From Hericium rajendrae (lineage: Eukaryota > Basidiomycota > Agaricomycetes > Russulales > Hericiaceae), in assembly GCA_033439255.1 (NCBI GenBank), contig CM065884.1, positions 620,001 through 684,000 of the forward strand: 64,000 nucleotides of DNA, given 5' to 3'. The notes beneath the pieces are model-generated. The model searched no databases. It worked only from the letters and a program-made list of their open reading frames with translations, and was not told the origin of the DNA. How positions within the stretch are numbered: position 1 is the first letter of the stretch; the number at the start of each line of letters is the position of its first letter. Below are positions 9,003 to 51,545 of this stretch, piece after piece. A program made the translations under genes and the position numbers.

Positions 9003-9730
9003 ATGTCTTCCCGCTCGTCTCGTTCTTCCTCTCGTTCTTCCTTCGCAACTCCACCTCCTTCTTCGATATCGGAGTCTGAGCAGTATGAGCTCGATTCTGG
9101 CGGGAATCCTATCCGAACATCCTATGGTTACAAACCGACAGCTTGTATCGTTGCTGTACATTATATGGTAAGTCAAAGTCATTCTGTATTGTTCGTCCAT
9201 GACATTGCTCTCAACTGTAGAGACGCGGCATCAAACTTGACAAACTCGACCCGAGAGCCTTCGACACGCTTCCTCCCGAGTTATTGGTCTACCCGAAGAA
9301 ACCACATAACAATCGAAAGCACTTCCATTTCGGTGTCGGTGTCTCATATGATTGTCTGTGGGAGTATTGCATCGCTCGCGACCTAGTACCAAGGCACTAT
9401 CACACAGACCCATATTGCAGTGGTGCAATGGTTGACGCAGCGGTGAAGGAGATTAATCGTCTCTGCGGCGCAGAGCTGCAATTGTCCAATATCGCTAACG
9501 TGGAGCACGAATACGTTCTCTCGCGTTTCAGCAACTACACGTGGTTCAGCAAAAAACTGAGCGATCGCGATGAGCGGAAGGTCGTAGATATCATTCACAA
9601 AGAGCTTGGTATCTGCGACCGGCCAAGATGGTACCATAAGCTTGTTCGATGCCGTAAGTCGCTTTGCCTCCTTTCTCTGTCTGCGCTCTGACATCTTGAT
9701 ACCATAGCGTCTGGTCGCGGTTGGTTCTGA
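9003..9730 (+). CDS. Orphan small-protein family, copy A (type 1)
   Basis: Predicted 206 residues in three exons: 9003-9167, 9221-9653, 9708-9730, with introns GTAAGT...GTAG and GTAAGT...ATAG. The first exon is 55 codons, serine-rich, ending in a 'YELDSGGNPI...GYK' segment. Exon 2 carries the family core: 'LPPELLVYPKKP', then H-F-G-V-G, 'YC...LVP', 'RFSNYTW' and a C-terminal 'RPRWYHKL'. There is no signal peptide, membrane segment or known domain that I recognise. It is the most divergent plus-strand copy and shares its first-exon type only with copy F at 43.5-44.1 kb. It converges on the PD-(D/E)XK-like gene at 11.1-13.0 kb. Function unknown. Confidence 0.7.
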
Positions 9731-11065
9731 TGAATCCAGGGGCAGCAAGCACTCCATATCCCGCGACGTTACTCTCGCAGCTCTGCGTCGACGTCGCTCA
9801 CCTCGACACCCGTGTTCGCCTTCAATTCACCCGTACCTCGCTTTGACGGACGCCGACTCCGCTATTCCGCTATTCCAGTGAGATTCTGTAGGCGCGATAA
9901 GACATCAGCCTTAAGGTGCTCATGTGGAACACGCCCTTCAACACCAGCTGGAACACGCTGAGCTTCTCTCTGGGTGATCGCTCTTCTGACGCTCGCCAGA
10001 CTTCGCCGTAGTCAGATGCCTGTCCACGGCCGCGGCATGCTCGACCTCAGCGGCTTCTTCCGTCCTCACACGCAGACTATTCATTCCCCCCTCGACTTCT
10101 ATGCCGCAGCACAGTCGCGGAGATCTTATCGTGCTCAGTGTATGGTCATTGTACACCCGACATCCTCAATCTGCTCCGAGATGGCTATTTCCCGCATTGT
10201 AGGCGCAGAGATGGCCACCAGCGCGGATGGGACCCTTGCCAGTTGATCATGAAGACACGCGTAGTCGCAATGCCACGCTGATATCGCGCTCAATGCATTT
10301 AAGGTCGAAGCAGCCTGCTGCTGACGCATTTCGCATTCCTGATCTCGCGAGGAGTGGGCCGCCGTGCGCTTTGCGACAGATTGTTGGCGTACAGTCCCGC
10401 CGTCTGATTTCGCATTTTCTTAACCGACGTCAGCGCTGTTGGCTCCCCCGTGCATCCGGCGCTGCAGCGACATCATTCAACGAGCATGCTTGCAGAGAGA
10501 AATCTGCCCTCGTACGCCAAAATAATCGCTAGCGGGGCACTTACGCGTAGGCTTCAGATGTACTGCGGTTAGATAGAGCACGAGCCGCTGCGCTTCTACC
10601 TTGATCAGCAAAATAGCAGATGGGCGAGGATGAGGGAGTTACATCGTTGGGATCTGTGTATGGGGAATAGCTAGTTCTCATGAGAAATAACGATGGGTGG
10701 GCGTGCAACGACGGCTGTAAAATACTATCCCATGAGATGGACATCTGACTGGGATCAGTGGACACGGACCATTCACCGAGATACGTTCGCGCTGTCTGAT
10801 AACAAACATTAGTTAAATTATATAGCTTCAATATATTGGGTTACACGTCCTGCGACGTGCGTACAAATGAGTGTGGTTATACTAGGCGAAGCTACAAGGA
10901 GCGTGGGGATGCAAGGATCAGTAACGATACAGAAGAACATCATAATCGTTAAATAAAGAGAGTGTGTTGAGGCTGTTGAAGCCAATAAAGTTACGAAACA
11001 TGACCGAGCGAGGAGTACAGCACGTGTAAGGCAGCCTTGGGTCTTCTTGGAAGAGACATGTCAGT
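9731..11065. other. Intergenic, no supported gene
   Basis: Frames of 60-100 codons occur on both strands (for example 10541-10831 minus), but none shows a domain, codon-use contrast or convincing splice structure. This is the shared 3' region between convergent genes. Confidence 0.35.
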
Positions 11066-13029
11066 TTAGTGAGCGCGTTCTTTGCCTTTGCGTGAAGCCT
11101 GTCCTGGCTTCTTCGCGATGCCAGTAGAAGCCTCGGCCGGGCGATGAGCGGCCTTTTCATTCGACGGATCCGCGACAGCTTCATCAACAGGAGCACCAGC
11201 TTCCGGCGAGTCTCCAGAGGATTCGAGCTTGTGTTCCTTGGAAAACCTCGCACCCTGGGCTGCAGACTGAACAGGACGACCGCGAGGCCCAGCGCCTTGT
11301 TTCTTGGATGGACCAGCTACTTCGTCGGGAACCACCGGCTCATCTTGAACCTGATCGAACACGCATTTCTTGAATGGACCTGTGCCCTGGGTCCCGGAAC
11401 CGGCAGGAAGACGCAGAGGTGCGACTCGCTTGTTTGACGGTCCAGCGATGGCGTTGACGTGAGCATGAGCTGTTGGTGCATCTTGAGACTGACCGAGCCT
11501 AGTCTCCTCCGAAGACTGAGCGCGCTCAGGTCCAGACGTCTCAGCGACCAGATCACAGAGAATGTCCCTATTGGCAATCTTGCGCAGCGGTTTCGGAGAT
11601 GTATAGGTTACTTGGCGGTCGCGAAGGTTCCAGAGCTTGCCGTCTTCTGGACGCACGATGGCGGTTCTACGATTCTTGTACTCTGACTGCACAGATACTG
11701 AAGAATCCGTGGACATCGATTGATCCGGGAGCTTGCTCGCATCTTGCTCGGCCTTGAATGCGTCGATTGCCGCCTGCGCAACAACCTGGCAGACCAAAAT
11801 TGTTAGTAGAGGGCATCACGCATGAAGCACAAAAGCATACCAACGATTGCGTTAAGGTAATGGCGGCAAGTTCCTGGTCATCTGGAAGACAAAAGATGCG
11901 GTCCGACGATTTGAGCGTCACGCCGCGCAGAACCATCGAAACGTGCACGGCCTGGCGAAACTGCAGAGTGAATTCCGAACCATCGGGACGTAGTATATAT
12001 TCGCATGACGAGAATAGCCGAGGGATAGGATAATCGCCCTCTTCGAACAAGGGCTCTGTTGATGCTGTAGACGCAGCCGAAACGCTGGTGGACGTGTTCT
12101 TGGCATTCTCCGTCATTGCTTCCTCTGGTAGGTTTGTCAGTCCTTGCCCGTCGATAGTGGGGCCGCTGTTGTCTGCAGACATTCTCGCAGGCTGATTAGC
12201 TGCAGGTTCCGCCCTATCAGACACATGTTCTTGAACCGCTCGTGCTTCCTGTTGGCCTGAGGGAGTCTCCTGTTCCTGTAAGGGCGAGTAAGATTCCTGT
12301 TCCTGCGGCGTAGCTGGACGCGAGCTTCCCGGCTCAGGCGACTCTTTCCCAGTTGATGGGCGAGGTCCCATCTTCAGCGTCTCGGCATATTGGACCGCAA
12401 ACGTGTCCCAATTGGACGGCCGATCGTATACCAGGAGTGTAAAGCAATTTCCCTGGCTAAGAAAGACAGGCAGGGTGTCGCCTTCGTACTGATAGAAAGC
12501 GAACAAAGCTTGCCCGCTGAGCTGGCGGAGATACGTCTTCAGGCTCTTCTGCGCTCGAGTCGACGCGACATCCCTTTTGTCTGCATCAATATTGAGCCAA
12601 TTGCCCACGGAGAGCGCTTTGACTTCCCAGATCCAGACCAAAGAATCCTTCGGAGCGGGGTCGCAGTGACCCTGCGTAGAGACCCGCCTGGAAGCCCGCC
12701 TCGGTATGAGCACAACTGCATAGTCTGGGCTGCATTCGGCATCATCTGGACCTTTCAACGAGGGCTGAACATCTGTGGACACGATCAAATTTCTGTCCAA
12801 AGACTTGGAAGCAGCGGAAAATGCTTGAAGTATCTTGGCAATCGCATTGTAAGAGGCGGACTCCCTGTTGAGGTTTCTCTCCGCCCGCTCGAACGAGGCC
12901 GTGAGATCATCAAAAAATTCAATGCGCTAGAGACAGGTCAGAACAACGGCGGCGGGGAGTTGTAGCATATAATCTCACCGGATCAATGTCTTCGTCAGAA
13001 AGGGTGGGGTCAAGTGCGCCTGCGCTCAT
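11066..13029 (-). CDS. PD-(D/E)XK-like three-exon gene, copy 1
   Basis: Exons 13029-12979, 12926-11841 and 11785-11066 give 618 residues; both introns (52 and 55 bp) are phase 0. The start is ATG at 13029 (MSAGA...). Residues about 18-190 form a globular region with 'SPDYAVVL' followed by 'WIWEVKAL', the D...E-x-K pattern of PD-(D/E)XK nuclease-like folds, then 'QALFAFYQYEGD' and 'PSNWDTF'. A P/Q/S/T-rich linker, a second ordered block ('YILRPDGSEFTLQFRQAV') and a disordered basic tail ending in K-G-K-E-R-A-H follow. The tail and linker suggest a nuclear protein, which is inference. The homologue at 45.5-48.0 kb starts with the same five residues, has the same three-exon phase-0 layout and an exon 2 of equal length (1086 nt). 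Nuclease activity is unproven. Confidence 0.7.
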
Positions 13030-15790: not shown

Positions 15791-18746
15791 ATGCAACCCT
15801 CCGCTGAGACCCTCATGCCGTCCACTCCGGCCGTGCAGACCGCGCACACGGCTTCCCACGCCTCAGTCCTCAAGGAACCCCCTCCCAAACTTACGGGGAC
15901 TTTCCGCCGCACTGTGGCAGCCGGTCCCGCCGTTAGCAGCGCCGCAGCGCGCCTCGCCTCAAAGTCCTCTAAGGAGAACTGTAAGCACCAGCCTCCATAC
16001 ACCACTACACCCGCCTCATACCTCCCTGTCTGCTAGCGGCTACCCCTCCCTCGGGCCGTAAGAGCAAACGCCTCGAGGAACAGCGCGCCGCCGAGATTGA
16101 GCCGCTTCCCGACGCGCCGCCTGAGGTGAACCGCGCACCGGTGGCCACGGATCCGCCGCCCCCCGAACCTGACCAGGACACTCTTATGTCTGATGCTGCT
16201 GAGCAGCCCGCTGCATTGGCGGATGGCCCCGACGTGCAGCCCACCCTTGCCATTGCAACTGCGAACCCTTTCGCCCTGCTCGAAGGCCATGCCCAAAGCC
16301 CTGCGCCTACGCCCGTCCAGAAGCCTACCCCGACTGCCGCAGCTGCGCCGATACCTGCGCGTAACACCTTCGATGACCACGACACGTCCCAATACGCGGA
16401 GGGTGCCAAGGAGTTCTTCTCCGCTGAGCGTGAGCGCTATCCCCAGCAGCCAACCCGCTCCACTGTTTGCCTCGACAATGCACCCCGTTGTCATGAATCG
16501 CCCATTGGTCTTCTTCATTCCCTTTGTTCCCTATATGGACACTCCCTTGTTATGTTCCCTTGTTCCCTGTTAGGATATCCCTTGTTCCCCTTTGGGACAT
16601 CCCTTGTTCCCCTTCCCCTTGTTCCCCTTTCAGGATATCCCTTGTTCCCCTTTGGACTATCCTTCTAGTATATATAGGGCTACCTTCCTGACTGGCTTCC
16701 TCAGTTTGTCCACTTGACTCTCCAGTCCCATTGTACCCTAGACATTCTCAGCCTGTCTCTACTCTCATGACATCCTCTGCTCTTTGATCCTTGATCCCTT
16801 GGGGTGACTTGGATGGCTTCACTGTTCCCCTGAACCCAGTCTTGACATTTGGACAAACTCTCATACATCCACCTCACCCACCCCTGTCCATTGGATTCTT
16901 ACCCTCCCACCTAGTCCTTGAACCCACTGCCCACTGCCCAGCCATGACCCCATGATCACCAGATGAGTTGACACCATTGCTTGCAAAAACCCACAGAACC
17001 ACAGACCACAGAACACAGAACACAGATCCACTTGCAAGGTGGTTGTCAGTCTCAGACTCAAGATTCCATGTAGATGTTGGATAGGTGTTGGTGTGCTCCA
17101 GGTGCAAGCACACCTTAAAGAGGGGGTAATGTCATGAATCGCCCATTGGTCTTCTTCATTCCCTTTGTTCCCTATATGGACACTCCCTTGTTATGTTCCC
17201 TTGTTCCCTGTTAGGATATCCCTTGTTCCCCTTTGGGACATCCCTTGTTCCCCTTCCCCTTGTTCCCCCTTTCAGGATATCCCTTGTTCCCCTTTGGACT
17301 ATCCTTCTAGTATATATAGGGCTACCTTCCTGACTGGCTTCCTCAGTTTGTCCACTTGACTCTCCAGTCCCATTGTACCCTAGACATTCTCAGCCTGTCT
17401 CTACTCTCTATGACATCCTCTGCTCTTTGATCCTTGATCCCTTGGGGTGACTTGGATGGCTTCACTGTTCCCCTGAACCCAGTCTTGACACCCGTCTCGG
17501 CTTGATCGCGCCTGGCCGCACGGCGTGGGTTGCCCCCCATCCCGATGACCCGGACGAAAATCCCTTCTTCGAGCCCGCGCCGAAGACACCCGTCTCCGCC
17601 GCCCCTAGTGAACCGCCGCCGACCGACCCCGCCGCCGGTACCCCGTTATCGCGCTACGCTGAACGCACTACGCCGGCCCTCAGCGCCCGCGCTACCGAAA
17701 AGCAGCCCGCACTCACCATCCGACAGTCTAAGGACCTGGCGGCGCGCTGGGCCCTGGCGGCCGAACACGCCCCCTCCCCGCAAGGAGGTCACCATGCCTC
17801 GAAGACCGCGTCCAAATTTACCATGGGACCGTTCCCGGAAATCCATGACTTCAACCCCCTCGGAGCGCTCTCCCTCCTCGCCAAGGCCCAGGTCCTTGAG
17901 TGGGCGAAGATCCAAGGAGAGAAGGTCATCGCGCGTCCATTTGATACGCCCAAGCCTCCTCATCTCCACGCCACCACCGCGTCCATCCTCCAACGTGCTG
18001 TAGAGGAGGCTACGAACTTTGCGAATGCGCAGATCGCTGCGCCAATCCCCGCCACGCCGGTCACGCAGGAGACCCCGTCTCACAACATCCCGAACGCCTT
18101 CCTCATCTTCAACATCCCGGAAGCGACGGCCAAGCTCCTCCTATCCCGGTCCGTCTGGTCCTCCCAGGAGATTACCTTCCAAATCATCCCCATCGATTGC
18201 GGCATTCCACGTTACCTGTTCACTGTCGGCGGCTTCAGCACGCCGACCGACGAAGCTGTCCGTGAGGCCATCTATGAGCACTGGACGAGCCAAGATAGCG
18301 GCGACCGGATCATGGACGAAGTCGAGTACTTCATGGAAGAACAGTACCGCCTCACCCCGGGCGACTCCCAAAACTTCATCGATACGCTCCATGTTGAGCG
18401 CGTCCCCACCCTCGGGCGCGACAACCTCCCTCTCCCTCGATTCAATGTCTTCGCGGACCCGGACATGCTCGCCGACGAAAAACACTGGTACAAGCTCCGC
18501 GACATCTTTCGGTCGCTCCAGTACACCTCCAATTTCTGCGGCACGGGGACCGTCCAGCGCACGACGATGTGCTCGCTCTGCCACGGCGCCACCCACCCTC
18601 GTGGCCTTTGCCCTTTCCCCGAGCTCCCGGGCTGGAATGGCCCCCAGCGTGACCTGCCTGCCGACACCATGCGCGGCGGCCGCACCCGTGGCAACTCGTC
18701 CCACAGCGGCCCCAGCTACAATCGCGGCCGGGGACGCGCCTTCTAA
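15791..18746 (+). CDS. LINE ORF1 (CCHC knuckle), interrupted by LTR mini-element
   Basis: Starts at ATG 15791. The frame reaches a stop at 16036 unless a 56-bp GT-AG segment (15981-16036, GTAAGC...TGCTAG) is removed, after which it continues through 'KSKRLEEQRAAEIE' to 16488. An LTR mini-element then interrupts it; coding resumes just after the CCCGT duplication with 'LGLIAPGRTAWVAPHPD' and ends at 18746. Counting one copy of the duplicated site, the ORF1 frame is about 630 residues: a P/A-rich disordered N-terminus, a conserved middle ('FLIFNIPEATAKLLLS') and a C-terminal knuckle C-x2-C-x4-H-x4-C ('CSLCHGATHPRGLC') before an R/G-rich tail. Such proteins bind the element RNA in the ribonucleoprotein particle. 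An intron in a retroposed ORF is odd and may instead be an indel that resembles one. Confidence 0.75.
16484..16488. repeat. Target duplication CCCGT, left
   Basis: CCCGT directly before the left LTR; an identical copy lies at 17491-17495. Five-base duplications are the usual integrase footprint of LTR elements. Confidence 0.9.
16489..17490 (+). mobile_element. LTR mini-element (TRIM-like), whole
   Basis: A 1002-bp element: left LTR 16489-16847 (359 bp), internal region 16848-17129 (282 bp), right LTR 17130-17490 (361 bp). LTRs begin TGTCATGAATC and end CTTGACA, with a TATATATA box inside and repeated TTGTTCCCCTTT-type words. A purine tract AAAGAGGGGGTAA lies at 17117-17129, directly before the right LTR. 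The internal region has no coding capacity, so the element is non-autonomous, of the terminal-repeat-in-miniature type. The two LTRs are almost identical, which implies a recent insertion, younger than the LINE it sits in. A solo LTR of the same family lies at 5537-5918. No clear primer-binding site recognised. Confidence 0.92.
17491..17495. repeat. Target duplication CCCGT, right
   Basis: Identical to 16484-16488; LINE ORF1 coding continues from here. Confidence 0.9.
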
Positions 18747-24875: not shown

Positions 24876-25476
24876 ATGCCCAGACACCATACTTCTCTAC
24901 TATCATATCTCATTGAGGCTCGTAAAGAGTCCGGCAGCAACCATGTTCCCAGGCCTTTGATTGAGTCTACACCGAAGGCTCGAGCGGAGCGGTATCAGGT
25001 GGGTTTTATGTCTTCTTGCGTATTATATTTGCTCGCTGAACTCTGAATCGCAGCTTTACGCTTCACGGCGGGACGAGCATGAGCCCATGGACCAGCTTCC
25101 TCCTAGTTATCTCGTCTATCCCCAAAAGCCACGCGGCAACGTTCCCCTCTTCCACTTCGGAATCGGCGCGACTATGAAACAACTGCACGATTATGCAGTC
25201 CAACATCGCTTAGTCCCAGAGAAGTATTATAATGACGCTTTCTATGCCGGCGAAATCATCGAGGCCGCCGTCAAACATCTCGATCGCATATCTGGTGTCA
25301 ACTTATACCTCGAGGGCGTCCAGCATCCGAAGTATAGTTGGGTTGTGGCACGCTATTCCAATTACACCTGGTACCATGAAGAAGTCAACGCGTGGGAGGA
25401 AAATAAAGTTATCGACCTCATTAGGCGGGAGCTTAAGATAGAGGACATGCCGCAATGGCATTTTAGCGTGGTGTAA
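24876..25476 (+). CDS. Orphan small-protein family, copy B (type 2)
   Basis: Exons 24876-24998 (41 codons) and 25054-25476 give 181 residues; the intron GTGGGT...CGCAG is phase 0. The first exon is basic and begins 'MPRHHTSLLSYLIEARKESG'. Exon 2 has the full core: 'MDQLPPSYLVYPQKPR', 'FHFGIG', 'YAVQHRLVP', 'KHLDRISGVNLYLE', 'VVARYSNYTWYHEE', 'VIDLIRRELKI' and 'MPQWH'. The stop TAA overlaps a perfect GTAAGT donor, with an acceptor TTAG near 25531; splicing there would also end the protein at once, so a 3'-UTR intron is likely. It is the first of four tandem copies and starts about 130 bp after the LINE target site. No signal peptide or known domain. Confidence 0.75.
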
Positions 25477-26495
25477 GTCTTCGTATACCGGTTTACCGTT
25501 CCTGTACTGACGCACTTGCCGTGCTCCTTAGCTGAAACTCATAGTCGATTTCCTCCCGTTCCAGACGCAGATAAAGGTGGTCCCTTTGTGACTCGTTCGG
25601 CGATCTACCACTTGCCATCCTTCGCGCCATCGCCGCCAAGTCCCGACTTCAACCCATCGCCCTCGCCCTTTCACCTTGGACGCAGTCTCAACGGTGCACA
25701 TGCTATCATGCTCCGCCACCACAGTCTCACCGCAAGATCACGCGGTTCTAGCATTCTCTGATCAAACCTCCTTCGAGTCGGCACTGTGACCCATTATCGT
25801 GTTCGCCCCCAAGCTGTCGTTGCGGTCACATGTCGTCACCTTCCTCACCACCAGCACGCGCGTCATGGTCCTGATGCATGGGTTCCCGCGCCGAGAGCGT
25901 TGTCAAAACCAACTTGACGTTCGTCGAGCTTACCTGTCCGCACGACGGTGGTAGGTTGCATCGCTGGCCCGACTGCAGCCGTCTGGGGTTTGGTCGACAA
26001 GGAGGAATGACGTCGCCGGCATCACCGTGACATGCATGGCCCCGCACCGTGCCAATTTATGGGAGACGCCGTGTTGAGCTCAGCTGAGGATGTGGGACTT
26101 CGATTGATTGGCTGCATGGGATTGGCTGGAACATGGTCTAATGGAGGGATGATAGCATCGCGATGTCATGGAGATCGTTCTCGGCACGATATAATTGTAC
26201 ACATGTCCTTTGGATGTGGCGCGGAGTATCATTAGTTAGAACCAAACAACAATGCCCGTCTCTTTATATTTGATATAAGCTATGATTGTGGGGGCTCCAG
26301 AGCTGAAAATGTCGAAGAAGTCGAATTCTGGATTTCAACGGGAAGTCAACAGGCGCTTGTCGGTCTTTCGTTTCCTTCAACTTGTCAAGTTCGTGCGTAA
26401 GACATTTACCTCCGTCACGCGTATCATCATCGATTGAACCTGTACGCATCATCTCCATCTCATCCTGCATCCGTGCTCCATTATTCTCGTCTATC
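25477..26495. other. Spacer with conserved 3' flank of the tandem unit
   Basis: No gene seen. The part at about 26095-26235 (GATTGATTGGCTGCATGGGA ... GATGATAGCATCGCGA ... GGATGTGGCGCGG) resembles the flanks of copies C and E, so the duplication unit extends beyond the gene. A CT-rich tract precedes the next start, as in the other type 2 copies. Confidence 0.45.
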
Positions 26496-27106
26496 ATGCC
26501 GAAATACCATACCCCGAAATCATTCCTCATTCAGGCTCGACAGAAGTCTGGAGAGGATCGTATCCGCAAGCCCGTATACGAAAAATCTGCACCTAAGTTT
26601 CGAGCAAAATATTATCGCGTGCGTCTTGTATTACTTCCTATTGGTCTTCGATTTCCATGCTGACCCAAATTCAGTCTTGCGCTTGGCGGCAGAAGGAGCA
26701 GCAGCCTTTGGACCAACTCCCGCCTCAATATCTTGTGTATCCCGGAAAGCCACGCTCTGACGTGCCCCGATTTCACTTCGGTCTCGGCGTTACTCATCAA
26801 CAACTACACGAATACGCAGTCCAACATGACCTGGTTTCGCCCGAATACTACAACAATCCCCGTTTAGGCCTCGAAACCATCCAGGCCACAGTCAAGCATC
26901 TGGATCGCCTATCCGGTGTCAACTTATACCTCGAGCCAGCTTTGCACCCTAAGTATAGTTGGGTCGTGGCACGCTATTCCAATCACACTTGGTACCATGA
27001 AGAAGTTCACGAGCGGGAAGAGAATAGAGTCGTTGACCTCATTAGACGAGAGCTCAACGTAGAGGGCATGCCGCAATGGCATCACAATATGTCTCCCTAC
27101 TGGTAA
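26496..27106 (+). CDS. Orphan small-protein family, copy C (type 2)
   Basis: Exons 26496-26618 (41 codons) and 26675-27106 give 184 residues; the intron GTGCGT...TTCAG is phase 0. The first exon begins 'MPKYHTPKSFLIQARQKSG'. Exon 2 holds 'LDQLPPQYLVYPGKPR', 'FHFGLG', 'YAVQHDLV', 'KHLDRLSGVNLYLEP', 'VVARYSNHTWYHEEV', 'VVDLIRRELNV' and 'MPQWHHN'. As in copy B, the stop codon (TGG TAA) forms part of a GTAAGT donor. It is very close to copies B, D and E, with identical spacing of motifs. Unknown function. Confidence 0.75.
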
Positions 27107-28251
27107 GTGTTCGGATGTTTTTTTGTGTTCTTGTGTACTCACGCACTCGCGTTCTCACAATTATATTCGGCCCAATCACACGAGCGCAGATCAAGCCGTC
27201 TTAATACTCGTTTGACGGCCTACCTACCTATCTGAGTCTCCCTTCCATTGTTCTGGACTCTGGCCTCGCCACCAGGCCTCCCCCGCGAACCATTTCATTC
27301 GCTCTTCGGATCCTCGCAGTAACTATGGCGCGCACGTCTAGCAAGTCCCGATTGCTGTAGTTTCAGCATCTGACTCTACAAACACCGGACTTCGCGCGTT
27401 TCTACCACCGGTTTTTGTCGGAGACTTGCGCTTTCTCGTACTCCTTATTGCTGGCACGATCGACAAGCTTTGTCATGCAGATCCCTGTGCACTCCCGCGC
27501 CTTGAACTCGACGCCTGCACTTGCTACGCAAAGCGGGTTGCGGCGCATCGCCGGCGCTCCTATACCTCCCTAATATCTGGTCGACGACGACGCGATCGGT
27601 ATCATCCGCTTCCACGCGCATCCCAACCTTATGGACGCATCATATCGAGCGCGACCGAGGCATGAGGGTAAATTGTTGGATGGGATTGACTCGGACGAAG
27701 TCTGGTGGGCGAATGATAGCATTGCGACGTGGAGATCTTTGTCGTCACAATATTTGGGGTTTTTTTGGGTATCTACATGTTATTGTCGCTTTCTGAGACT
27801 GATGAAGTCAAAGAAGGCTTTGATATATCGTCAGCCTGATTTTCACGGGGAATGCGAGGCTGCATATGTGATACTGCGGATAGCCAGCTCTCTTCGACAA
27901 CGATAATAGAGGTGTTTGCGTCGACTCGACGCGTCGTAAATCATTGCATGTTCCTTGCTTTCGATGAGCAGACCTGCGGTCCTTCGCTCACGCAGCAGCA
28001 TGATTTGGTGATTACTTGCATGGAAAGTTAAGTCCTACTAAGCTCTGTAGAGAGACTCACAAGGATTTGTTCTAACTTCTAAGCCGAGACCCATTACTAA
28101 ATTAATGCCATTAGCGCCCGTTCACTCGACGCGGTCACGTGGACCTCCCTCTACTCACGCTTTCTTCAATCCGCCGTTCGTCGTCTTCAATTTGCCTTCA
28201 TCCGCAAATTGTTTACTCCTTCACTTGTACTTCGACACTCTCATCTTCATC
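27107..28251. other. Spacer with conserved 3' flank of the tandem unit
   Basis: No gene supported. About 27665-27790 carries GGGATTGACTCGGACGAAGT, then GCGAATGATAGCATTGCGAC and ATTTGGGGTTTTTTTGG. The same order appears after copies B and E. Confidence 0.45.
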
Positions 28252-28852
28252 ATGCCTACACATCGTACCTCACACTCGTTTCTTGTTCTGTCTCATCAAG
28301 AATCCAGAGACGATCGCGTCCACAAACCTCTAGTCAAGGAGGCTACATCGCAGTCTCGAGCAGAACATCAGCATGTTAGTCGTGTACCGCATATCTCCTA
28401 GTTCTCTGTACTGAACTCTATCACAGAACTACTCATGGCGTTTGAAGCCTAATGAACCTCTACATCAGCTTCCTGCGCAGTACCTTGTTAATCCAACAAA
28501 GCCACGTTGCAATCCCCCCCGATTTCATTTCGGAGTCGGCGCCCCCATGACAAAACTTCTAGACTATGCGATCCAACATCGTTTGGTCCCAGATGCACAT
28601 CGTTACAACGGACTTCTGCATCTTAACACAATGGAGGCTGTTGTCAAGCATCTCGACCGCATATCCGGTGTCAATCTATATCTCGAGCCAGTCTCGCACC
28701 CGGATTATGGGTTCATCGTGGCACGCTACTCGAACTATAGTTGGTATCACGAGGAACTTGCGGAGCGGCCAGAACAAATGGTCGTTGACCTAATTAGAAA
28801 GGAGCTCAACGTCGATGACATACCGCAATGGCACCATAACGTGTCTCCTTGA
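28252..28852 (+). CDS. Orphan small-protein family, copy D (type 2)
   Basis: Exons 28252-28374 (41 codons) and 28427-28852 give 182 residues; the intron GTTAGT...TCACAG is phase 0. The first exon begins 'MPTHRTSHSFLVLSHQESR'. The core reads 'LHQLPAQYLVNPTKPR', 'FHFGVGAPM', 'YAIQHRLVP', 'KHLDRISGVNLYLEP', 'IVARYSNYSWYHEE', 'VVDLIRKELNV' and 'IPQWHHN'. Here the TGA stop comes just before the conserved TTGTAAGTCTTCG donor sequence, so the donor motif survives outside the coding region. That supports a 3'-UTR intron across the subfamily. Confidence 0.75.
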
Positions 28853-29268
28853 CTTGTAAGTCTTCGAATATCAGTTTGCATTTTTGCCCTACTGATGCAC
28901 ACACTGTTCTCGACAGCTCAACTGAGTCGCTCCTGCCCCTGCATGAGTAGCGCGAACAAAGCCCGACCCGTTTGTTACCGCTTTGGCAAGCCTCCCTCCC
29001 TCCCTTCGCGCGACAATCTAGCGTCACCGGCGAGCCTCCGTCTCCTCCATCTCCCTCACTCCTCCGCCTTCAACGCCTTGAAATTTAGAAATGACTGGTG
29101 AATACACGTAATACCTAAACGTGATCGTGTTCCAAAGGCGGAGTGCCTGTGGCACTCGTCCTTTTCGACCGTGACGCCTCTCTCGGCTCGCGCCTTGAAG
29201 TCGCGTTCATCCTCGCAACATCAAGCACTTTACTCCTTCATCTGTGCTTCATCCCTCTCACCCTCATC
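28853..29268. other. Spacer between copies D and E
   Basis: About 415 bp, much shorter than the other spacers. The conserved distal flank seen after B, C and E was not recognised, so part of the unit seems to be missing. It ends in a CT-rich tract before the copy E start. Confidence 0.4.
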
Positions 29269-29872
29269 ATGCGCAAACACCGTGTCTCGACATCATACCT
29301 CATCGAGGCTCATAAAGGCTCCGCAGACAATCATGAACGTGAATCCTCGATCAAACATGAGTCTACACCCAAGGTTCGAGCAGCATGGTATAAAGTAGGT
29401 CTCATGTCTTCCAACGTCCCAAAGTTCGGTGCTGAATACTGGATCTTAGCATTGCGCTTCGCGACAGAAGAACCGCGAGCCTATGGACCAGCTTCCTTCT
29501 CAGTATCTTGTCTTTCCCAATAAGCCACGCTGCAACGTCCCCTTGTTCCACTTCGGAGTCGGTGCCACCATGCAACAACTGCAGGACTATGCGGTCGAGC
29601 ATGGCTTGGTCCCTGCAGAGTATCGCAACAACCCTTTCTATACCATCCGGACGGTCGAGGCCACCGTCAGGCATCTGGATCGCATATCTGGCGTCAACTT
29701 ATACATCGAGCCCATCCGCCATCCTAAGTGTACTTGGGTCGTGGCACGTTATTCCAACCACACCTGGTACCATGAAGAACTCGCGGAGCGACAGGAACAT
29801 ACAGTCCTTGATTTCATTAGAAGGGAACTTGACATCGTGGATATGCCGCAATGGCACCCTACGACCTTGTAA
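29269..29872 (+). CDS. Orphan small-protein family, copy E (type 2)
   Basis: Exons 29269-29394 (42 codons) and 29450-29872 give 182 residues; the intron GTAGGT...CTTAG is phase 0. The first exon begins 'MRKHRVSTSYLIEAHKGSA'. The core reads 'MDQLPSQYLVFPNKPR', 'FHFGVGATM', 'YAVEHGLVP', 'RHLDRISGVNLYIEP', 'VVARYSNHTWYHEELAERQ', 'VLDFIRRELDI' and 'MPQWH'. The stop TAA overlaps the GTAAGTCTTCG donor, with an acceptor TTTCAG at about 29919. The upstream TTTACTCCTTCATCTGTGCT is shared with copies B and D. Last member of the tandem array. Confidence 0.75.
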
Positions 29873-34596: not shown

Positions 34597-34621
34597 AGAA
34601 GAGAAGGAAGTAGTAATTGGT

Positions 34622-35995: not shown

Positions 35996-36150
35996 GATGA
36001 TAGAGAAAGATGGGGTGGAGAATAGTTAGGGGTATGACAGCGTCTTGTGTGTGGTGGTTGATGGTCGGTGTTTGAATTCGGAAGCTAACTTGGGTGGCTG
36101 ATATTTTGGGCCACATTTCATTGAACCATCATCGTCGCAGTCATATAACA

Positions 36151-41724: not shown

Positions 41725-41758
41725 GTAGAATCTCTTATCTATTTCCAAAGTCAACAGG

Positions 41759-42278: not shown

Positions 42279-42374
42279 GCGTCGAAGACTGATGTTATCG
42301 TCTTAGTAAGAGCAAATGACACATTGTTTACCATGGACAGTCCACTGTCCACGTAGACGTCCTCGCAAACAATG

Positions 42375-43028
42375 TCAGAATTGCGGGAGTGGAGTATACC
42401 TCGCTGTCGCTCGGTGAAATTGCACCCACAAATAAGTAACAATTTGATACCATTTCGGTGTGGAGGTTATCATGGCCAGCTCTCGGCGGATGATATCGAA
42501 AACTTCTTCGTCTGGGGGCCCATGAATTCATCAGATTCATGTGATAGAACCAATCGTGGTTATATGGCGTGCCATTAGCTATGGTCGTCGGCTTTCCAGC
42601 GCGGCTCTCCAAGAGAGAGTATGGCTCCTGATAATGGATAGCCCTCAACATGTCGGAGAACCGACGCGCATCGTCGCTGGCGAATCCAATAGTCGAGGGT
42701 ATGAGACTGTGCTTGACAGCATAGTCATACAGCGTGTCTCCACCGACGCCGATGCAATAGCGTAGTTCCGGGATACGACAGCTTTGCTTCTGGGGTGAAA
42801 TGATGTACTCGGCCGAAAGCTGCTCCATTGGTTGCAACTGCTTCTGGCGTAAGGCAAAGAGCTATCCAGTGGTGAACATGATGGACACAGAGAAAAAAAT
42901 GACATACGAACCTCGCAACGTCTTGTTCTGCGACGGGGACCCAGCTTTCGTAGCACCCTACGATGGATTTTGTCACAACCAGGCGACCCATTGGGAAGAC
43001 ATATTTTGCGTTCTGGGATGCAGGTCAT
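42375..43028 (-). pseudogene. Orphan small-protein family, copy H (type 3), frameshifted
   Basis: Exon 1 is 43028-42912 (39 codons, 'MTCIPERKICLPNGS'), then a 50-bp phase-0 intron GTTCGT...GATAG. Exon 2 starts at 42861 with 'LFALRQKQLQPMEQL' and shows the type 3 core 'YIISPQKQS', 'YDYAVKHSLIPSTIGF' and 'NHDWFYHMN'. Compared with copy I it lacks several residues after 'MLRAIH', and near 42525 the frame changes: the expected 'GPPDEEVFDIIRREL' continues in another frame. It is therefore a recent pseudogene. The nearest relative is copy I at 50.9-51.5 kb, almost identical in exon 1. Confidence 0.7.
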
Positions 43029-43459: not shown

Positions 43460-44111
43460 TCATGTAAGAATGTCAGACAGATCGTGGTACCACCGCGGAC
43501 TCTCAAAGACGTTCAACTCTCGTTGAATAACCTGCATCGCGAACTCTTCATCTTCCTCCATCAGCACGTCGTCGTACCACGTGTAATTCGAATATCGCAA
43601 TACGGTCCACTCGTGTTCGCATTGAAGAGGATAGCCAAGATATAGGTCTGCGCCGCAGGCGCGGTCTAGTGCTTCCACCGCCCTGTCCAGTGTTCGCATC
43701 AGAAACCTCGGATCATCGAGTTCCTCCTGCGGAGCGAGATGACTCTTGGTGGCATAATTATGCAGTTGCTGCGTTGTGACACCAAGGCCATAGTGGACCG
43801 GAGGTGGGTTGTTGTGTGGCTTGTTGGGGTAGACGAGATAGTCCGATGGCAGCTGGTCGAAAGGCTCGCAGCCCTTATACCGCGTCGCACGCGACTAGGG
43901 AAAAAGTGAGCAGATGACCAAGTTGGACAGTGGCAAGAGCGCGTACCTGATGCTGCTTCAGATCGCAATGGGCTGTCAGCTTATATCCTTCACATGTCTC
44001 AATGAAGTTTCCCTCCGCGTCGAGTTCGTACTCGTCGATGTAAGGTCTGATAGAAGGGTGGACAGACATCGTTGGCGAGTCGAACTCGGATGGTGGAATG
44101 ACTGGAGACAA
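43460..44111 (-). CDS. Orphan small-protein family, copy F (type 1)
   Basis: Exons 44111-43947 (55 codons) and 43894-43460 give 199 residues; the 52-bp intron GTACGC...CCTAG is phase 0. The first exon has the same length as in copy A and the same 'DEYELDAEGNFIET...GYKLTA' pattern. Exon 2 contains 'FDQLPSDYLVYPNKP', 'VHYGLGVTTQQLHNYA', 'DRACGADLYLGYP', 'VLRYSNYTWYDDV', 'MQVIQRELNV' and 'SPRWYHDL'. No signal peptide or known domain. It sits 333 bp beyond copy G on the same strand, and copies F, G and H form a minus-strand group of mixed subfamilies. Function unknown. Confidence 0.72.
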
Positions 44112-44444: not shown

Positions 44445-45049
44445 TCAGATAAGACTGTGGTACCATTTTGGCGTGGAGGTTATGGCCAACTCTCGGCGGA
44501 CAATGTCAAACACATGCTCATCAGGTGGTCCCTTCGCTACGTTCACGTGGTGCCAGTGACTATGGTTGCTGTAGTAAGCCACCAGGGAGTAGGATTCTTC
44601 GGCAGTCCAGCGTGGCCATTGAAGAGACAAATCCCCGCCGGATAACTCCTTCAACTGGTGAACAGCCCGTAGCATGCCACAGTATCGACGCGCAGCGGCG
44701 TTGACAAAGCCAAGATTGGGTATGAGATCGTGCTTGATGGCATAGTTGTACAACGTATCATCGCTGACAGCGATGGAATAGTACAGTTCTGGGGTACGAC
44801 GGGCTTGCTTCTTGGTCGAAACAATGTACGCTGGTGGAAGCTGTTCCATTGGTGCCAGACGCTTCTGTCGTGATACTCGGATCTAAGAGGAACAGTAAAT
44901 ACGATAGAAGAGATCTTCCAACAATGCGTACGGACCTCGCAACGTCTGGTTATGCGACGAGGACCTCGCTTCCGCGTTGGCTTGCACTGAACTTTGGCAC
45001 AAGCATCAGACCCATTGGGATGATGTTTGCGTTCTGGAATGCAGGTCAT
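44445..45049 (-). CDS. Orphan small-protein family, copy G (type 3)
   Basis: Exons 45049-44936 (38 codons) and 44882-44445 give 183 residues; the 53-bp intron GTCCGT...TCTTAG is phase 0. The first exon begins 'MTCIPERKHHPNGSDACAKV' and ends in a basic 'RKRGPRRITRRCE'. Exon 2: 'MEQLPPAYIVSTKKQARR', 'LYNYAIKHDLIP', 'LVAYYSNHSHWHHVNV', 'VFDIVRRELAI' and 'TPKWYHSL'. The R/K-rich exon 1 end could act in nucleic-acid binding or nuclear import, which is speculation. It is divergent from the PD-(D/E)XK-like gene at 45529, with 480 bp between the start codons. Confidence 0.72.
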
Positions 45050-45528
45050 TTCGAGTAGAGAGAAGTTACTGAAGAAGAGACGTGATCTCGGGATGATCGA
45101 TGAAGAGAAAGTTACGAGAGTAACTATCCGTTCGGAGGTTCACAATGAAGAGGTCGACTCGATGGTTGAGCCACACTTAGACGCTTGGATGTTGATTACG
45201 CGATCACGTGGAAGGAAGCCGCGTGCTTTGCGTCCATCTGTCGACTCACTCCGTACTTACCCACTCTTCATCTCGGCCACGGCGTACAATAGCTTTGATC
45301 AAATGGCCACTCGATGTGCGACGTCCACGACGCGAACAATACAAGGCCATTCAGTTGGATCCGTAATTTCACCGTGATTCCCAGAGGACAATGCGACTGC
45401 ACAGTGTCGTCCCCGCTATGAGATCTAAGGTACGGGTGCATTGTAGCCACGAATGAAAAGTATAAATTATACAGGGACCCGCTGTCCCAAGATTTTCCTC
45501 TCACTTGTTCCTCCATCACAGATCAGCC

Positions 45529-48017
45529 ATGAGCGCAGGCGCTCCGCAACCAGCTATCGACGCTCTTCGTAGAGATAAGCATGTGCGTAATTACTCTCTC
45601 GCTAGATTAGTGTGAGCTCACGGTGCTACTCAGGTGATTGTGATCGAAGAAGAAGCCTGGTTCCAGAATCTTCACCGCACAATTCACCATGCAGCGACGC
45701 GCAAGAATTTTGAAGTCTACCTCTACGATCCACTCATGCAAATTTTCGGGACGTATGCGAAGACATGCAGCCATGAGGACTACAAGGTCGCAGTCATTCC
45801 GCAGGGATGCTTCGAGCTCAGGACGGATTCTTCCACGAGGGTCACCCGTACACTCTCGGATGCTCTTTTTGCAATTCATTCTAACCCCACCGGTGATCCC
45901 GGCGACCCACAGTATGGCAAGTCTCGGCTAGGCGGTTGGGTGGAGGGAAAACCATGGGTTCAGCTCCCGAAGAAAGCGAAAAAGAAAGGAGCGGCCAACA
46001 CAGTTAAGAAGGTGGACGCCGGCAAGGACAACGTCGAAGGGCAGGACAATGGAAGCGAAGTCATCGCAGAGGAGGTCAGTGTGGACAGGAAGTGTAGTGC
46101 CAAGGAGGGAATCGATACAGGCCAAAAGGATATCACTGCAGACGAACAGGGTACCAATGCAGAGGAAGAGGATGCCGCCTCAGACGACGAGGATGCCGCT
46201 GCGGACGATGAGGATGTCGCGTCAGATGAAGAGGACATTACTTCGGATGAAGAGGGCACAGACGTGGATGAGGAGGATGGGGATGAACAGGAGTTCGATA
46301 CAGGTGAGGTACCTGCGATGTCAGTTGACGGCCCCTCTGTCGAAGATGCCTCTGCTTTGGTTCTTGATCCTAAGGAGGTGACTCAAAGGCTGGTTAAGGA
46401 CCTCCGTCAGCTGTGTAAGCAGGCATATTTTGCCTTCGATCATTTTGACGACGACGAAATCCTCTCCTTCATCACATACGGGATGACGTTCTCTTGTTTC
46501 AAGTTCATAAGGCCTGCTAATTGGGACAGCATCCGAGGAGACAAAAATGGAATTGTCGACGCACCCATCCCGATCTACTCGAACGAGCGCATGGTCTTCG
46601 ATCATTGGATCAATCCTTACCTTAAGAAAGCTCTTCGTTTGATGACAGCATCACTGGATCTGACGTATCAACCATCCTGGTTTGACCCCCCCACTCATGA
46701 CATTCCGGAACCAGATCTGGTATGTCTCATCGTTTGTGAATCCGTAGCCATGATTTTCTGAACGATATTTATCAGAGTATTGCCCAGAAGGCCATTGACC
46801 GTTATAACAAGAAAATAAAGGGCACCGTACTAGGAAGCTCGCCTGAGAGAGGACCAACGAAACCAGTGAAAGGCGACTCCCCTTACGTTGATTTGACCAA
46901 GGAAGCCACCGCTCCAGCGATACAATTGAGGCCCAAACTTCGCTCAGGCATAGGCGGCGCTGAGACATCCGGAACCGATCTGGAGTCTGCTGAGAATGAG
47001 GGAATCGAGACACCCGAACCTGCTCCCGAACAGCATGACGGTACCGACCCAACAAGTTCAGATATTGAAGATTCTCCTCTGGCTCAACATCTGCCACCAC
47101 AGTCGGCGCAATCTGGACATGCTTCTCAGGGAAATGATGCTTCTGCGACCTCAGGCATCCCTGGAACTGCTGGCTCGTCAACGGAAGGCACACGCAACCT
47201 GGCTGACAATGCTCGCACTTCCGCCTTAGCCCTTACATCTGGTGTCAACCTGAACGACAAGTTGCTCACGCCGAAGAATCGTGGCAAGCAGATTCCTAAA
47301 GTACCTCGCGGCAAGGCTCGCCAAAAGAATATCGACTTTCGCACCAATGCAAATGGCTCTGCACTGCCCGCGCTGCTATCGCCACCTATCAATGACGCCC
47401 CGACCGGCGACGGACTTGGTGGTTCTGGATCTCATGCGTTTGGACACCTGCCGATATCTCAAGAAGCTAATGGCGATGATTCTCGGACTGGCGTGCGTTC
47501 GAAAGCCAAATCGCGCAAGCGGAAAGGCCGGCCGTCTAGCCCGTTGAGATTTGACAGTCCGGATCCTGACCCAGCTGGAAACAGCGCGCCAACGCTGGCT
47601 GGCCCTTCCAAGAAACGACGGCTGGTCCCTCAAGCAGATGAACAACCTGTTGACAACAGCGCCGGTGGTCCCTCAAGCACATCACGCATGGCGGCCCAAG
47701 TGTCCGCTGGTGCAACTAGCGCCAGGGACGACGCAGCAGCTGAACGTGTCTATGATCCCTTGACGGCGCCAGAGCGTGCTCGCCTCCCTAACACTCGTGT
47801 TTACCAGTCCCGCGCCGCTGCTGACAGACGCGCTCGATCTAAAACCAAGCCCGCTGTTGGGACAGCAGAGACTGCCGCTGCGGTCGCCGAACCCGCAGCC
47901 CCTGGTCGCTCTGGGATCCAGGCTCGTTCTATCGCTGGATCTTCTCGAGCTCGAGTTCGCGACACTCCGCCACCCCAACGGAAAGACAAGACGAAGAGCA
48001 AGAGGTTTCGTAAATGA
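45529..48017 (+). CDS. PD-(D/E)XK-like family gene, copy 2, with acidic insert
   Basis: Exons 45529-45582, 45634-46719 and 46776-48017 give 793 residues; introns of 51 and 56 bp are phase 0. The start MSAGA is the same as in the gene at 11.1-13.0 kb, and exon 2 has the same length (1086 nt). The N-terminal globular part has 'HEDYKVAVIPQG' where copy 1 has the nuclease-like D, but the E-x-K position seems replaced by 'WVQLPKKAKKK', so activity may be lost. An acidic D/E repeat at about residues 195-235 follows, then 'QAYFAFDHFDDDEILSF' and 'PANWDSIRG', both matching copy 1, and a 400-residue disordered, basic C-terminus ('KAKSRKRKGRPSSP', 'KDKTKSKRFRK'). A nuclear role is likely but inferred. 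Confidence 0.65.
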
Positions 48018-49340: not shown

Positions 49341-49545
49341 GAGGTTTGCCTATGGTTTGGCAATAAGCGGCCCTAGATAGGCTGCAAGAAGAGGTGATGG
49401 ATTAGCTACAGGGGTACCGCAGTGAATACGAATTGAGACAGAAATATACGGGAAGGGATTGATGTTACAAGGCAAGGCGTGGCCGAAGGGAAACAAGGAA
49501 ATCTATTGCAGCAATGCAAGCCGTCAGAGAAGGGAAAGATAGTAG
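49341..49545 (+). repeat. Dispersed repeat, copy 2 (orphan-family 3' flank)
   Basis: Counterpart of 34074-34360 in direct orientation, without the middle part of that copy. It lies immediately downstream of the minus-strand fragment J. Confidence 0.7.
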
Positions 49546-49563
49546 AAGAAAGTGCACTCACAA

Positions 49564-49685
49564 TTAAGTAGATACCTTGTACCATTTTGGCATGGAAGTT
49601 ATGTCCAATTCTCGGCGGACGAGGTCGAAAACAACTTCGTCCGGTGGTCCATTCAACACGTTCATGTGGTAAGACCAGCTGTGAT
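49564..49685 (-). pseudogene. Orphan small-protein family, fragment J (type 3)
   Basis: Only the last 40 codons remain: 'WSYHMNVLNGPPDEVVFDLV', then 'RRELDITSMPKWYKV' and a stop at 49564. The rest of exon 2 and exon 1 are missing. The cut end joins unrelated sequence at about 49690, 250 bp before the NUF2-like relic. Confidence 0.7.
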
Positions 49686-49929
49686 TCCTAATTCCCGGCT
49701 CTAGCGGAGCTAGAAAGAGGGTTTTGGCGGGACTTTTTTGAAACGTCTTGAAACTCGGATCATGTGATGTAATGTTAATGTTGACGCGTTATTTGGTTCT
49801 TTCTACGCCCTCTCGCGTCTGCTGCTTGATAGTCTAGATGGCGGGCAACGATGCGTTGTTTCTCTTATCTCTGGCACCTTATACTGCGGCACACACTCGC
49901 GCATACCACTCGTGATGGAGAAAAAGTGA

Positions 49930-50170: not shown

Positions 50171-50940
50171 GAGGACTGACTCAGTGAGGACGCGCAGCTG
50201 CAGGACAATATGCCACGCTCCCGCACGCGCTGAGCGATCTTGTCGTTAGTTCACTTGCACTGCTCTTGCATTGCGCTTTAGCTTGCCTTCGTCAATGTGT
50301 CAGCCCCATCGATACGGTGCTATTTGCCGTGGCTGCTCACATTGTCTGATGTGGCCCCAATGTGTAGCCGAACAGCTTTTCCACAATCTTATCCGCGAGG
50401 AGCATGGGATCCCCCTGCAGCAGTGACGGCTTTGCAAAGACTGAAGGCATGGTCTGGACCTGCGCCATGGTGTGGACGAGGTGCTCGACTGCGATACCCA
50501 GAACTGCCGTTACACCGCCAACGTGTTGGCTGCGAGGTTCAAGCTGCAGAAGGCTGCATTTGCAATGGTTGACTAGGTTGGGTGGACACCCCGCGTACTC
50601 AATGCATTTATTTTATGGCATGAATCTACAAAGTGGCTGAGAAAGAGATACATTGTGGAAAAGTAATAGGATGATCCCACCCTTCGTATGGCTTAAGTGC
50701 ATGTTGTTACACCCAAGATCTAAGAATTTTGGACAAAGTTGCGAAGGTGGGCCTCTCTGAGCCGGGAACCGGTGCGCGCACCGCTACGATGTTTCAGTGC
50801 TTCGGCTCGGGACGTATATTGCTAAACGCGGTCACGTGCCTCTGAGTATGATCCCGATAACGTCGTTACTCTCAGAACTTGGTCTTCGTCCTACCTCTCT
50901 CCTCATAGAACACTATTCTCAACCTCTGGCTCTACTTAAG
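50171..50940. other. Relic-bearing spacer
   Basis: Broken frames, possibly more of the NUF2-like duplicate, up to the start of copy I. No intact gene. Confidence 0.35.
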
Positions 50941-51545
50941 ATGACCTGCATTCCAGTACGCAAAATTCTTCTTCCCAATGGGTCGCTTGGTTGTGCCAAA
51001 GTTCATCGTAGGGTGCTACGCAAGCTGGGTCCCCGTCGTAGAACAAGACGTTGTGAGGTTCGTATGTCATTCTTTTCTCTGCGTCCGTCATGCTCACCAC
51101 TGGGCGACTCTTTGCTTCACGCGAGAAGCGGCTGCAACCAATGGAGCAGCTTCCCCCCGAGTACATCATTTCATCCAAGAAGCAACGCTGTCATATTCCG
51201 GAACTACACTATTGCATCGACGTCGGTGGAGACATGCTGTATGACTATGCTATCAAGCACAGTCTCATACCCTCGACTATTGGATTCACCAGCGACGATA
51301 CGCGTCGTTTTCCCGGCATGTTGAGGGCTATCCACGCGTTAGAACTGTTATCAGGAGCCATACTTTCTCTCGCAGAGCCGCGCTGGAAAGCCGACGGCCC
51401 ATGGCCAGTGGCGCGCCATTGTAACCACGATTGGTTCTATCACATGAAGGTGATGAATGGACCGCCAGACCAAGAAGTCTTCGATATCATTCGCCGAGAA
51501 CTGGCTATAACCTCCACGCCGAAATGGTATCACTTCGTTATTTGA
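50941..51545 (+). CDS. Orphan small-protein family, copy I (type 3)
   Basis: Exon 1 is 50941-51057 (39 codons, 'MTCIPVRKILLPNGS...RRRTRRCE'). Exon 2 ends at 51545 and carries 'MEQLPPEYIISSKKQR', 'YDYAIKHSLIPSTIGF', 'NHDWFYHMKVMNGPPDQEVF', 'DIIRRELAI' and 'TPKWYHFVI'. The acceptor used by copy H (GATAG before CTCTTTGC) is GGCGA here, so I propose the next AG at 51124-51125, giving 178 residues and a 68-bp intron; the frame is phase 0 either way. Very close to copy H but on the opposite strand and without its frameshift, so H and I are a recent inverted duplication about 8 kb apart. Confidence 0.65.

What the first reader, a model, noticed from the sequence alone, without database searches (positions are those of the whole stretch)
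9003..51545. Orphan small-protein family with ten copies in 42 kb
Copies A-J share an unrecognised core of about 130 residues: Q-L-P-x2-Y-L/I-V, a [FH]-x-[FY]-G-[LV]-G or Y-x-I-x-V segment, Y-A-x2-H-x-L-[VI]-P, [RYF]-[SH]-N-[YH]-x-W-[YF], [IV]-x-R-E-L and P-[QKR]-W-[YH]. None shows a signal peptide or known domain. Dense lineage-specific expansion with pseudogenes inside a transposon-rich island is typical of rapidly evolving genes such as self/non-self or conflict systems, but the role is unknown. This is my best candidate for an undescribed system.
Basis: partly seen in the sequence, partly recalled or inferred. Interest (0 to 1): 0.75.

Follow-up and report, generated by a model that had tools for sequence, protein, structure and literature searches.

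The report
Mushroom nuclease-like and small-protein gene pairs

Summary
Ten copies of the small-protein family ("S") lie at window 9003-51545: eight with an open core, two decayed. The genome holds at least 48 S loci, 34 of them in 360 kb around the window. S has no Pfam match above cut-off and no NCBIfam, PHROG or PDB match of note. It is under purifying selection (dN/dS 0.16-0.48 in 26 of 27 close pairs); no stretch exceeds 1, so "rapidly evolving" is not supported.

A second unannotated family ("P", 793 aa for the window model) has 15 detected loci; 14 lie head-to-head with an S gene, including the most divergent pair, and P and S distances agree (Mantel r 0.82, 0 of 20,000 permutations). 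P's invariant residues are E...Y...Q...ExK...Q...QA with a D before ExK: the order of a PD-(D/E)XK nuclease site. A CACGTGACC-like element lies between the two in 9 of 12 pairs examined. Most S loci have no detected P; no detected P lies far from an S.

Best reading: a two-gene nuclease/antidote-like module, like fungal Spok in logic but split and without a kinase. The pairing is shown; nuclease activity, toxicity and the role of S are inferred.

The parts
9003..9691 (+). S gene 'A': exon 1 9003-9167, exon 2 from 9221, stop at 9689-9691
24876..25476 (+). S gene: exon 1 24876-24998, exon 2 core to 25473
26496..27106 (+). S gene: exon 1 26496-26618, exon 2 core to 27103
28252..28852 (+). S gene: exon 1 28252-28374 (the automatic model began at an earlier ATG; this start is chosen by comparison), exon 2 core to 28849
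29269..29872 (+). S gene: exon 1 29269-29394, exon 2 29450-29869
42331..43028 (-). decayed S copy: exon 1 42912-43028 recognisable, core frame lost partway, 3' piece at 42378-42527
43460..44069 (-). S gene: exon 1 43947-44069 (with a DxxGN motif), exon 2 43463-43894
44445..45049 (-). S gene of the head-to-head pair with P at 45529-48017: exon 1 44936-45049, exon 2 44448-44882
45199..45210 (.). promoter element between the pair: CGCGATCACGTG, one mismatch from CGCGGTCACGTG
45529..48017 (+). P gene (nuclease-like partner), predicted exons 45529-45582, 45634-46719, 46776-48017 (793 aa, no internal stop); starts MSAGA; acidic first half, basic C-terminal part
49567..49788 (-). open stretch holding a 3' fragment of a decayed S copy
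50827..50838 (.). exact promoter element CGCGGTCACGTG upstream of S at 50941
50941..51545 (+). S gene: exon 1 50941-51057, exon 2 core from about 51126 to 51542 (weak predicted acceptor); no P beside it
28130..28141 (.). exact promoter element CGCGGTCACGTG upstream of S at 28252
11069..13029 (-). second P gene in the window: exon 1 12979-13029 (MSAGA...), exon 2 from 12926, exon 3 about 11785-11069; the one P of 15 without a head-to-head S (convergent with S 'A', about 1.4 kb away)

Best explanation
The small proteins (S) and the large proteins (P) are two halves of a co-inherited, divergently transcribed gene pair. Shown: the pairing, its conservation across strongly diverged copies, purifying selection on both genes, and a shared promoter element. 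Inferred from conserved residues: P is a metal-dependent nuclease of PD-(D/E)XK type, probably nuclear because its C-terminal part is very basic. Inferred from the pattern of copies: S controls or neutralises P. Extra S copies without P would then be orphan antidotes that protect against P proteins carried elsewhere, for example in other nuclei of a dikaryon or in other spores. The logic would be that of a killer/antidote or self/non-self module; whether it acts in meiosis or in cell fusion cannot be told here.
For: Pairing: a search with the window P gives 15 matches in 13 places, 12 of them just upstream of and opposite to an S gene; three further P queries bring P to 15 loci, 14 of 15 head-to-head with S. 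The five P loci outside contig C7 (C1, C4, C6, C9, C13) are all paired, although only 14 of 48 S loci lie outside C7. Co-inheritance: Mantel r 0.82 over 12 pairs, 0 of 20,000 permutations as high. Spacing: P and S start codons 441-551 bp apart in 8 of 12 pairs examined, 959 bp in C4, 3 not settled. Nuclease site: over nine aligned P cores (24-44% identity to the first) the invariant columns are E24, Y28, Q56, E91, K93, Q127, Q131, A132, with PD aligned before ExK in 8 of 9 and a D close by in the ninth. Selection: S pairs 0.16-0.48 in 26 of 27, P pairs 0.14-0.39 in the six of 13 with a defined dS, two of these near saturation. Asymmetry: 14 of 48 S loci have a head-to-head P, while 15 of 15 P loci lie within about 3 kb of an S. 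S shows no invariant acidic, basic or Cys residue that would suggest an enzyme. Precedent: in Spok a predicted PD-(D/E)XK domain is needed for killing and a second domain for resistance (PMC6660238, passages), and evidence from E. coli and yeast points to DNA damage (PMC9972908, passages).
Against: No profile or structure supports the nuclease fold: no PDB chain at E 10 or better, no Pfam better than E 0.099, structure prediction switched off. A profile comparison of P with the motif-matching N-terminal part of FunK1-type kinase genes gave no support. Nothing shows that P is toxic or that S binds it. S may outnumber P simply because S is small and duplicates in tandem (four copies at 24876-29872) and because diverged P is harder to detect (four P queries only). 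No diversifying selection was seen. The alignment left out four P copies then known: two close relatives of a row (C6, 697k; both keep D and EGK) and two broken ones (C13, with N for the D; 796k). One P (window 11069-13029) lacks a head-to-head S.
Confidence: 0.42

Rival explanations
1. A defence module: P is a nuclease aimed at mycovirus, plasmid or transposon nucleic acid, and S is its sensor or brake. Selection keeps many diverged pairs because the targets differ.
For: Same anatomy; the cluster holds a LINE-like element and Helitron segments; shared promoter element in many copies.
Against: Nothing ties P or S to a target; no domain was found with Pfam, and the PADLOC library was not searched. 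The excess of S over P fits an antidote better than a sensor.
Confidence: 0.25
2. A regulated gene pair with an ordinary cellular role (DNA repair, chromatin or fruiting-body biology), expanded by birth and death; P's ExK site may or may not be active.
For: Purifying selection without any diversifying signal; a promoter element that also lies near FunK1-type kinase genes and other genes.
Against: At least 48 S loci, several decayed, in a stretch with transposons is unusual for a housekeeping role (general knowledge, not tested).
Confidence: 0.2
3. The pair is the gene content of an old mobile element: P the endonuclease of the element, S an accessory protein.
For: A nuclease-like gene in dispersed copies (C1, C4, C6, C9, C13 and C7) with homologous blocks of up to 3 kb.
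Against: Copies are old and diverged yet selected. Ends of whole units were not searched for terminal repeats or target-site duplications, so this is not excluded.
Confidence: 0.08
4. S and P are functionally unrelated neighbours that share a bidirectional promoter and were copied together.
For: Head-to-head spacing near 480 bp and a shared element.
Against: The arrangement is kept in the C4 pair, whose P and S are only about 26-27% identical to their nearest relatives among the 12 pairs; no detected P lies away from S.
Confidence: 0.05

Closest known systems
Spok spore-killer proteins of Podospora (PMC6660238 and PMC9972908, passages seen)
   Same: A predicted PD-(D/E)XK nuclease site, with a Q-x3-Y motif comparable to P's Q-x3-Q, is the part needed for killing; a separate part protects; the family is dispersed and duplicated.
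   Different: Spok is one protein with a kinase domain needed for resistance; here there are two genes, no kinase match in P or S, and no killing has been shown.
FunK1-type fungal kinases (PF17667; the name FunK1 is recalled)
   Same: N-terminal pieces upstream of PF17667 exons in this genome show the same order of motifs (E-x3-PMP, D, E-x-K-P, Q-x3-Y in 4 of 4 rows; PD in 3 of 4), and five promoter-element sites lie 0.8-1 kb upstream of such exons.
   Different: P has no kinase domain, and a profile comparison with these pieces gave no statistical support.
Bacterial toxin-antitoxin and nuclease-immunity pairs (recalled)
   Same: Adjacent, co-inherited pair of a nuclease-like and a small protein, with extra lone small genes.
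Two-gene allorecognition in fungi, such as het-B of Podospora (PMC10890737, search listing only)
   Same: By its title, two unlike proteins interact to decide compatibility between strains.
   Different: That system has a HET domain; no HET match in P or S.

Membership tests
PD-(D/E)XK nuclease superfamily (P) | Ordered catalytic residues E ... D ... E-x-K ... Q (order recalled; Spok passages name the PD-(D/E)XK and QxxxY motifs) | tested here: met
   E, ExK and Q invariant in 9 of 9 aligned P; PD aligned in 8 of 9 with a D close by in the ninth; E, D, ExK and Q kept in 2 of 2 later copies; the broken C13 copy, left out, has N for D
PD-(D/E)XK nuclease superfamily (P) | Detectable profile similarity to a known member | tested here: not met
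   Pfam best E 0.099 over 7 proteins; PDB none at E 10; hhalign against FunK1-type N-terminal pieces: probability under 1%
PD-(D/E)XK nuclease superfamily (P) | Restriction-endonuclease-like fold and nuclease activity | not testable with these tools
   structure prediction switched off
Spok | Nuclease and kinase domains in one protein | tested here: not met
   no kinase match in P or S
Spok | Killing of spores without the gene, and resistance | not testable with these tools
   -
FunK1 / Pkinase_fungal PF17667 | PF17667 kinase domain | tested here: not met
   no PF17667 match in P or S
Two-gene toxin-antidote module | Two genes kept together across diverged copies | tested here: met
   14 of 15 P head-to-head with S; Mantel r 0.82
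Two-gene toxin-antidote module | Putative antidote found alone, putative toxin not | tested here: inconclusive
   15 of 15 P within about 3 kb of an S; 14 of 48 S with a head-to-head P; weaker detection of P and tandem duplication of S are confounders
Two-gene toxin-antidote module | Toxicity of P, relief by S | not testable with these tools
   -
HET / NLR incompatibility proteins | HET, NACHT or NB-ARC domain | tested here: not met
   no such Pfam match in the S or P proteins scanned
Small secreted effectors | N-terminal signal peptide | not tested
   no signal-peptide program used; exon-1 sequences look polar by eye

The most novel reading that the evidence does not exclude
A split, kinase-free killer system in a mushroom-type fungus: a nuclear PD-(D/E)XK toxin (P) and a dedicated small antidote (S) expressed from a common bidirectional promoter, amplified into some 15 specificities, with about 30 orphan antidotes forming a genome-wide immunity repertoire that decides which nuclei or spores survive.
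Probability: 0.25. Interest if true: 0.88.

Novelty: new variant of a known kind. Interest (0 to 1): 0.68.

Why it matters
Spok, the fungal killer with a nuclease part that I could read about, carries poison and resistance in one ascomycete protein, and the listings showed no such system described for mushroom-forming fungi. A natural two-gene version with many diverged pairs and many lone small genes in one genome would make the matching of poison to antidote directly testable by mixing pairs. Even if the function turns out different, two unannotated families with a conserved divergent arrangement and an invariant nuclease-like site are a concrete target for annotation.

Tried and rejected
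Known domains for S: Pfam, NCBIfam, PHROGs, PDB by sequence (9, 13, 49). In the scan of 18 members each of nine families was matched by one member; the best two, DUF1959 (E 6.4e-4, 20.4 bits against a cut-off of 24.3) and STAR_dimer (16.4 against 26.3), are below cut-off. Rejected.

S in prokaryotes or viruses: one pattern scan each, 21 and 57 candidates, none confirmed. Fungal genomes other than the window's own could not be searched, so spread across fungi is untested.

S as a degenerate relative of P: profile comparison gives nothing. P as a FunK1-type N-terminal domain: same motif order by eye but no profile support. S against those pieces: nothing.

Promoter element as a marker for hidden S copies: of the 54 exact sites not at an S gene, 31 were fetched with about 1 kb on each side and none held an S match (best E 4.4). 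The element therefore also lies near other genes. In one search the 14-mer came from the same stretches it was counted in, so that count describes and does not test.

The P at window 11069-13029: no S found head-to-head. Diversifying selection: windows of eight codons over 11 pairs give ratios of 0.12-0.70.

Organism: not named by the tools. A text search for an assembly size of 46.77 Mb gave one listing, a Hericium paper (PMC10608310), which I did not open and do not claim as the source. "Mushroom-type fungus" rests on recall of FunK1-type kinase abundance and intron size.

Literature: searches were seen as listings with abstract starts; one search returned none. Passages were seen only in PMC6660238 and PMC9972908. 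Absence from print is claimed only for these searches.

Full report
OBSERVATION. A profile built from eight seed copies finds ten members in the window, all at E 1.8e-11 or better, plus one piece of a broken copy at 1.8e-7; the rest is E 1.9 or worse. Eight have an open core; two are decayed (42331-42861, 49567-49788). Each intact gene has a short exon 1, one short intron (47-76 nt over 41 automatic models) and exon 2 with the core.

SIZE OF THE FAMILY. Searches of the window's own genome (46.8 Mb, 19 contigs) with three members give 47, 44 and 38 matches. From the 54 domain rows, with pieces of one copy merged, I count 48 loci: 34 on contig C7 between 460 and 820 kb, which surrounds the window, and 14 on C1, C3, C4, C6, C9, C11 and C13. 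The tool states that such counts are lower bounds, and only fetched stretches were scanned with the profile. A tree of 40 cores has 19 of 37 inner branches well supported.

SELECTION. Over 37 members (666 pairs), the 27 pairs with dS below 1.2 have dN/dS 0.16-0.48 in 26 cases and 0.73 in one distant pair; the pairs overlap and are not independent. In 11 sister-type pairs exon 2 gives 0.07-0.41 and exon 1 gives 0.16-0.82 in nine, undefined in two. The tightest stretches are around SNYTW, RREL, DQLP and FHFG; the loosest are between them. No window exceeds 0.70. These are genes kept by purifying selection, with turnover.

NO KNOWN DOMAIN. Pfam, NCBIfam, PHROGs and PDB by sequence give nothing above cut-off or consistent between members. 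Over 18 members only a W, an N and an L of the core are nearly invariant, which suggests a binding or structural protein rather than an enzyme; that is inference.

THE PARTNER. Duplicated blocks run about 1 kb beyond some S genes, and translated comparison shows a second, opposite gene there. In the window it is 45529-48017 (+), facing the S gene at 44445-45049. Searching the genome with the 381-aa open frame of this gene and with three diverged relatives gives 15 P loci. Fourteen are head-to-head with an S gene: C7 at 547k, 552k, 665k, 697k, 703k, 725k, 796k, 807k and 811k, and C1, C4, C6, C9 and C13. The fifteenth, window 11069-13029 (-), is convergent with S 'A' about 1.4 kb away. A scan of the fetched DNA with P profiles agrees (C4 was in the training set of one of the three profiles and was also found by another that had not seen it); the loci at 807k and 811k were not in that scan and rest. 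In eight of twelve pairs examined the P start (MSAG) and the S start lie 441-551 bp apart; C4 has 959 bp; three P starts (C1, C9, 703k) were not settled. Pairwise distances of P and S agree over 12 pairs (Mantel r 0.82, 0 of 20,000 permutations). The pairs therefore diverged together. P is also under purifying selection: 0.14-0.39 in six of 13 pairs, two of them with dS above 2; in seven dS was undefined.

WHAT P LOOKS LIKE. No Pfam or PDB match. Among nine aligned cores, eight columns are invariant: E24, Y28, Q56, E91, K93, Q127, Q131, A132; PD is aligned before ExK in eight, and the ninth has a D close by. Four copies then known were left out: C6 and 697k, close to a row that was in, and the broken C13 and 796k. 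This is the order of the PD-(D/E)XK nuclease site. The C13 copy, broken by stops, has N for D. The window P is 793 aa without internal stops; its first 380 residues have pI 4.4, the last 150 pI 11.3, with KKRR and RKRK runs. Nuclear location is inference.

PROMOTER ELEMENT. CGCGGTCACGTG occurs 63 times in the genome against 17 for the reversed control; nine of the 63 lie within 600 bp upstream of an S core. A full or nearly full 9-base part of it lies between P and S in 9 of the 12 pairs. Of 40 upstream stretches, 17 hold at least 12 of 14 matching bases against 0.1 in shuffles, but that 14-mer was derived from the same stretches. In the window as a whole, matches with up to two mismatches are not in excess (11 against 7.5 expected). 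Around 31 of the 54 other exact sites no S was found. Five sites lie about 0.8-1 kb upstream of FunK1-type kinase exons, three of them near-identical duplicates, so the element is shared with a wider gene set.

MECHANISM. The most likely reading is a two-gene module in which P is a harmful or potentially harmful nuclease and S its dedicated control protein or antidote. Steps shown: pairing, co-inheritance, selection, motif. Steps inferred: nuclease activity, nuclear action, toxicity, inhibition by S. The excess of S over P (14 of 48 S loci paired head-to-head; 15 of 15 P near an S) fits orphan antidotes, but tandem duplication of a small gene and weaker detection of P could give the same picture.

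COMPARISON. In Spok proteins a predicted PD-(D/E)XK domain is needed for killing and a kinase domain for resistance, in one protein (PMC6660238, passages), and evidence from E. coli and yeast points to DNA damage by Spok1 (PMC9972908, passages). P and S would work like a split version, but they are not members of Spok: no kinase was found. N-terminal pieces of FunK1-type kinase genes in the same genome show the same motif order, but a profile comparison gave no support. The listings of searches for a described two-gene nuclease/antidote system in mushrooms showed nothing that matched.

LIMITS. No other fungal genome could be searched. No expression data.

Noticed in passing
C2:125577, C2:186562, C2:229296, C2:245225, C3:2659438 (loci L078-L081, L083): The promoter element of the S/P genes also lies 0.8-1 kb upstream of FunK1-type kinase exons (PF17667, 127 exon matches in this genome); their N-terminal pieces show a D ... 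E-x-K-P ... Q-x3-Y order.
   Followed up: partly
C3:3591375-3592545, C7:707389-708551, C7:718188-719342: Three loci have two S-type cores in direct succession, the second with an insertion in the middle of the core: doublets that look copied as a unit.
   Followed up: no
window 19306-24496: LINE-like element with endonuclease, reverse transcriptase and RNase H segments, just upstream of the first of four tandem S genes.
   Followed up: no
window 36076-40969: Helitron segments (DUF6570, Helitron_like_N, PIF1 helicase) in successive open frames; a further open frame to 41724 has no Pfam match.
   Followed up: no
window 5537-5918, 16489-16847, 17130-17490: A repeat of about 360-380 bp: two direct copies 641-643 bp apart and one inverted copy about 11 kb away, 95-100% alike.
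   Followed up: no
window 5730-7613 (-): AT-rich stretch upstream of S 'A' with two long open frames without a Pfam match, in the place where a P gene would be expected.
   Followed up: partly
window 57755-59095 (-): HMG-box open frame downstream of the last S gene of the window.
   Followed up: no
C7:371463 and C7:375238 (L088, L089): Two promoter-element sites with similar downstream frames, apparently another small paralogous family that shares the element.
   Followed up: no
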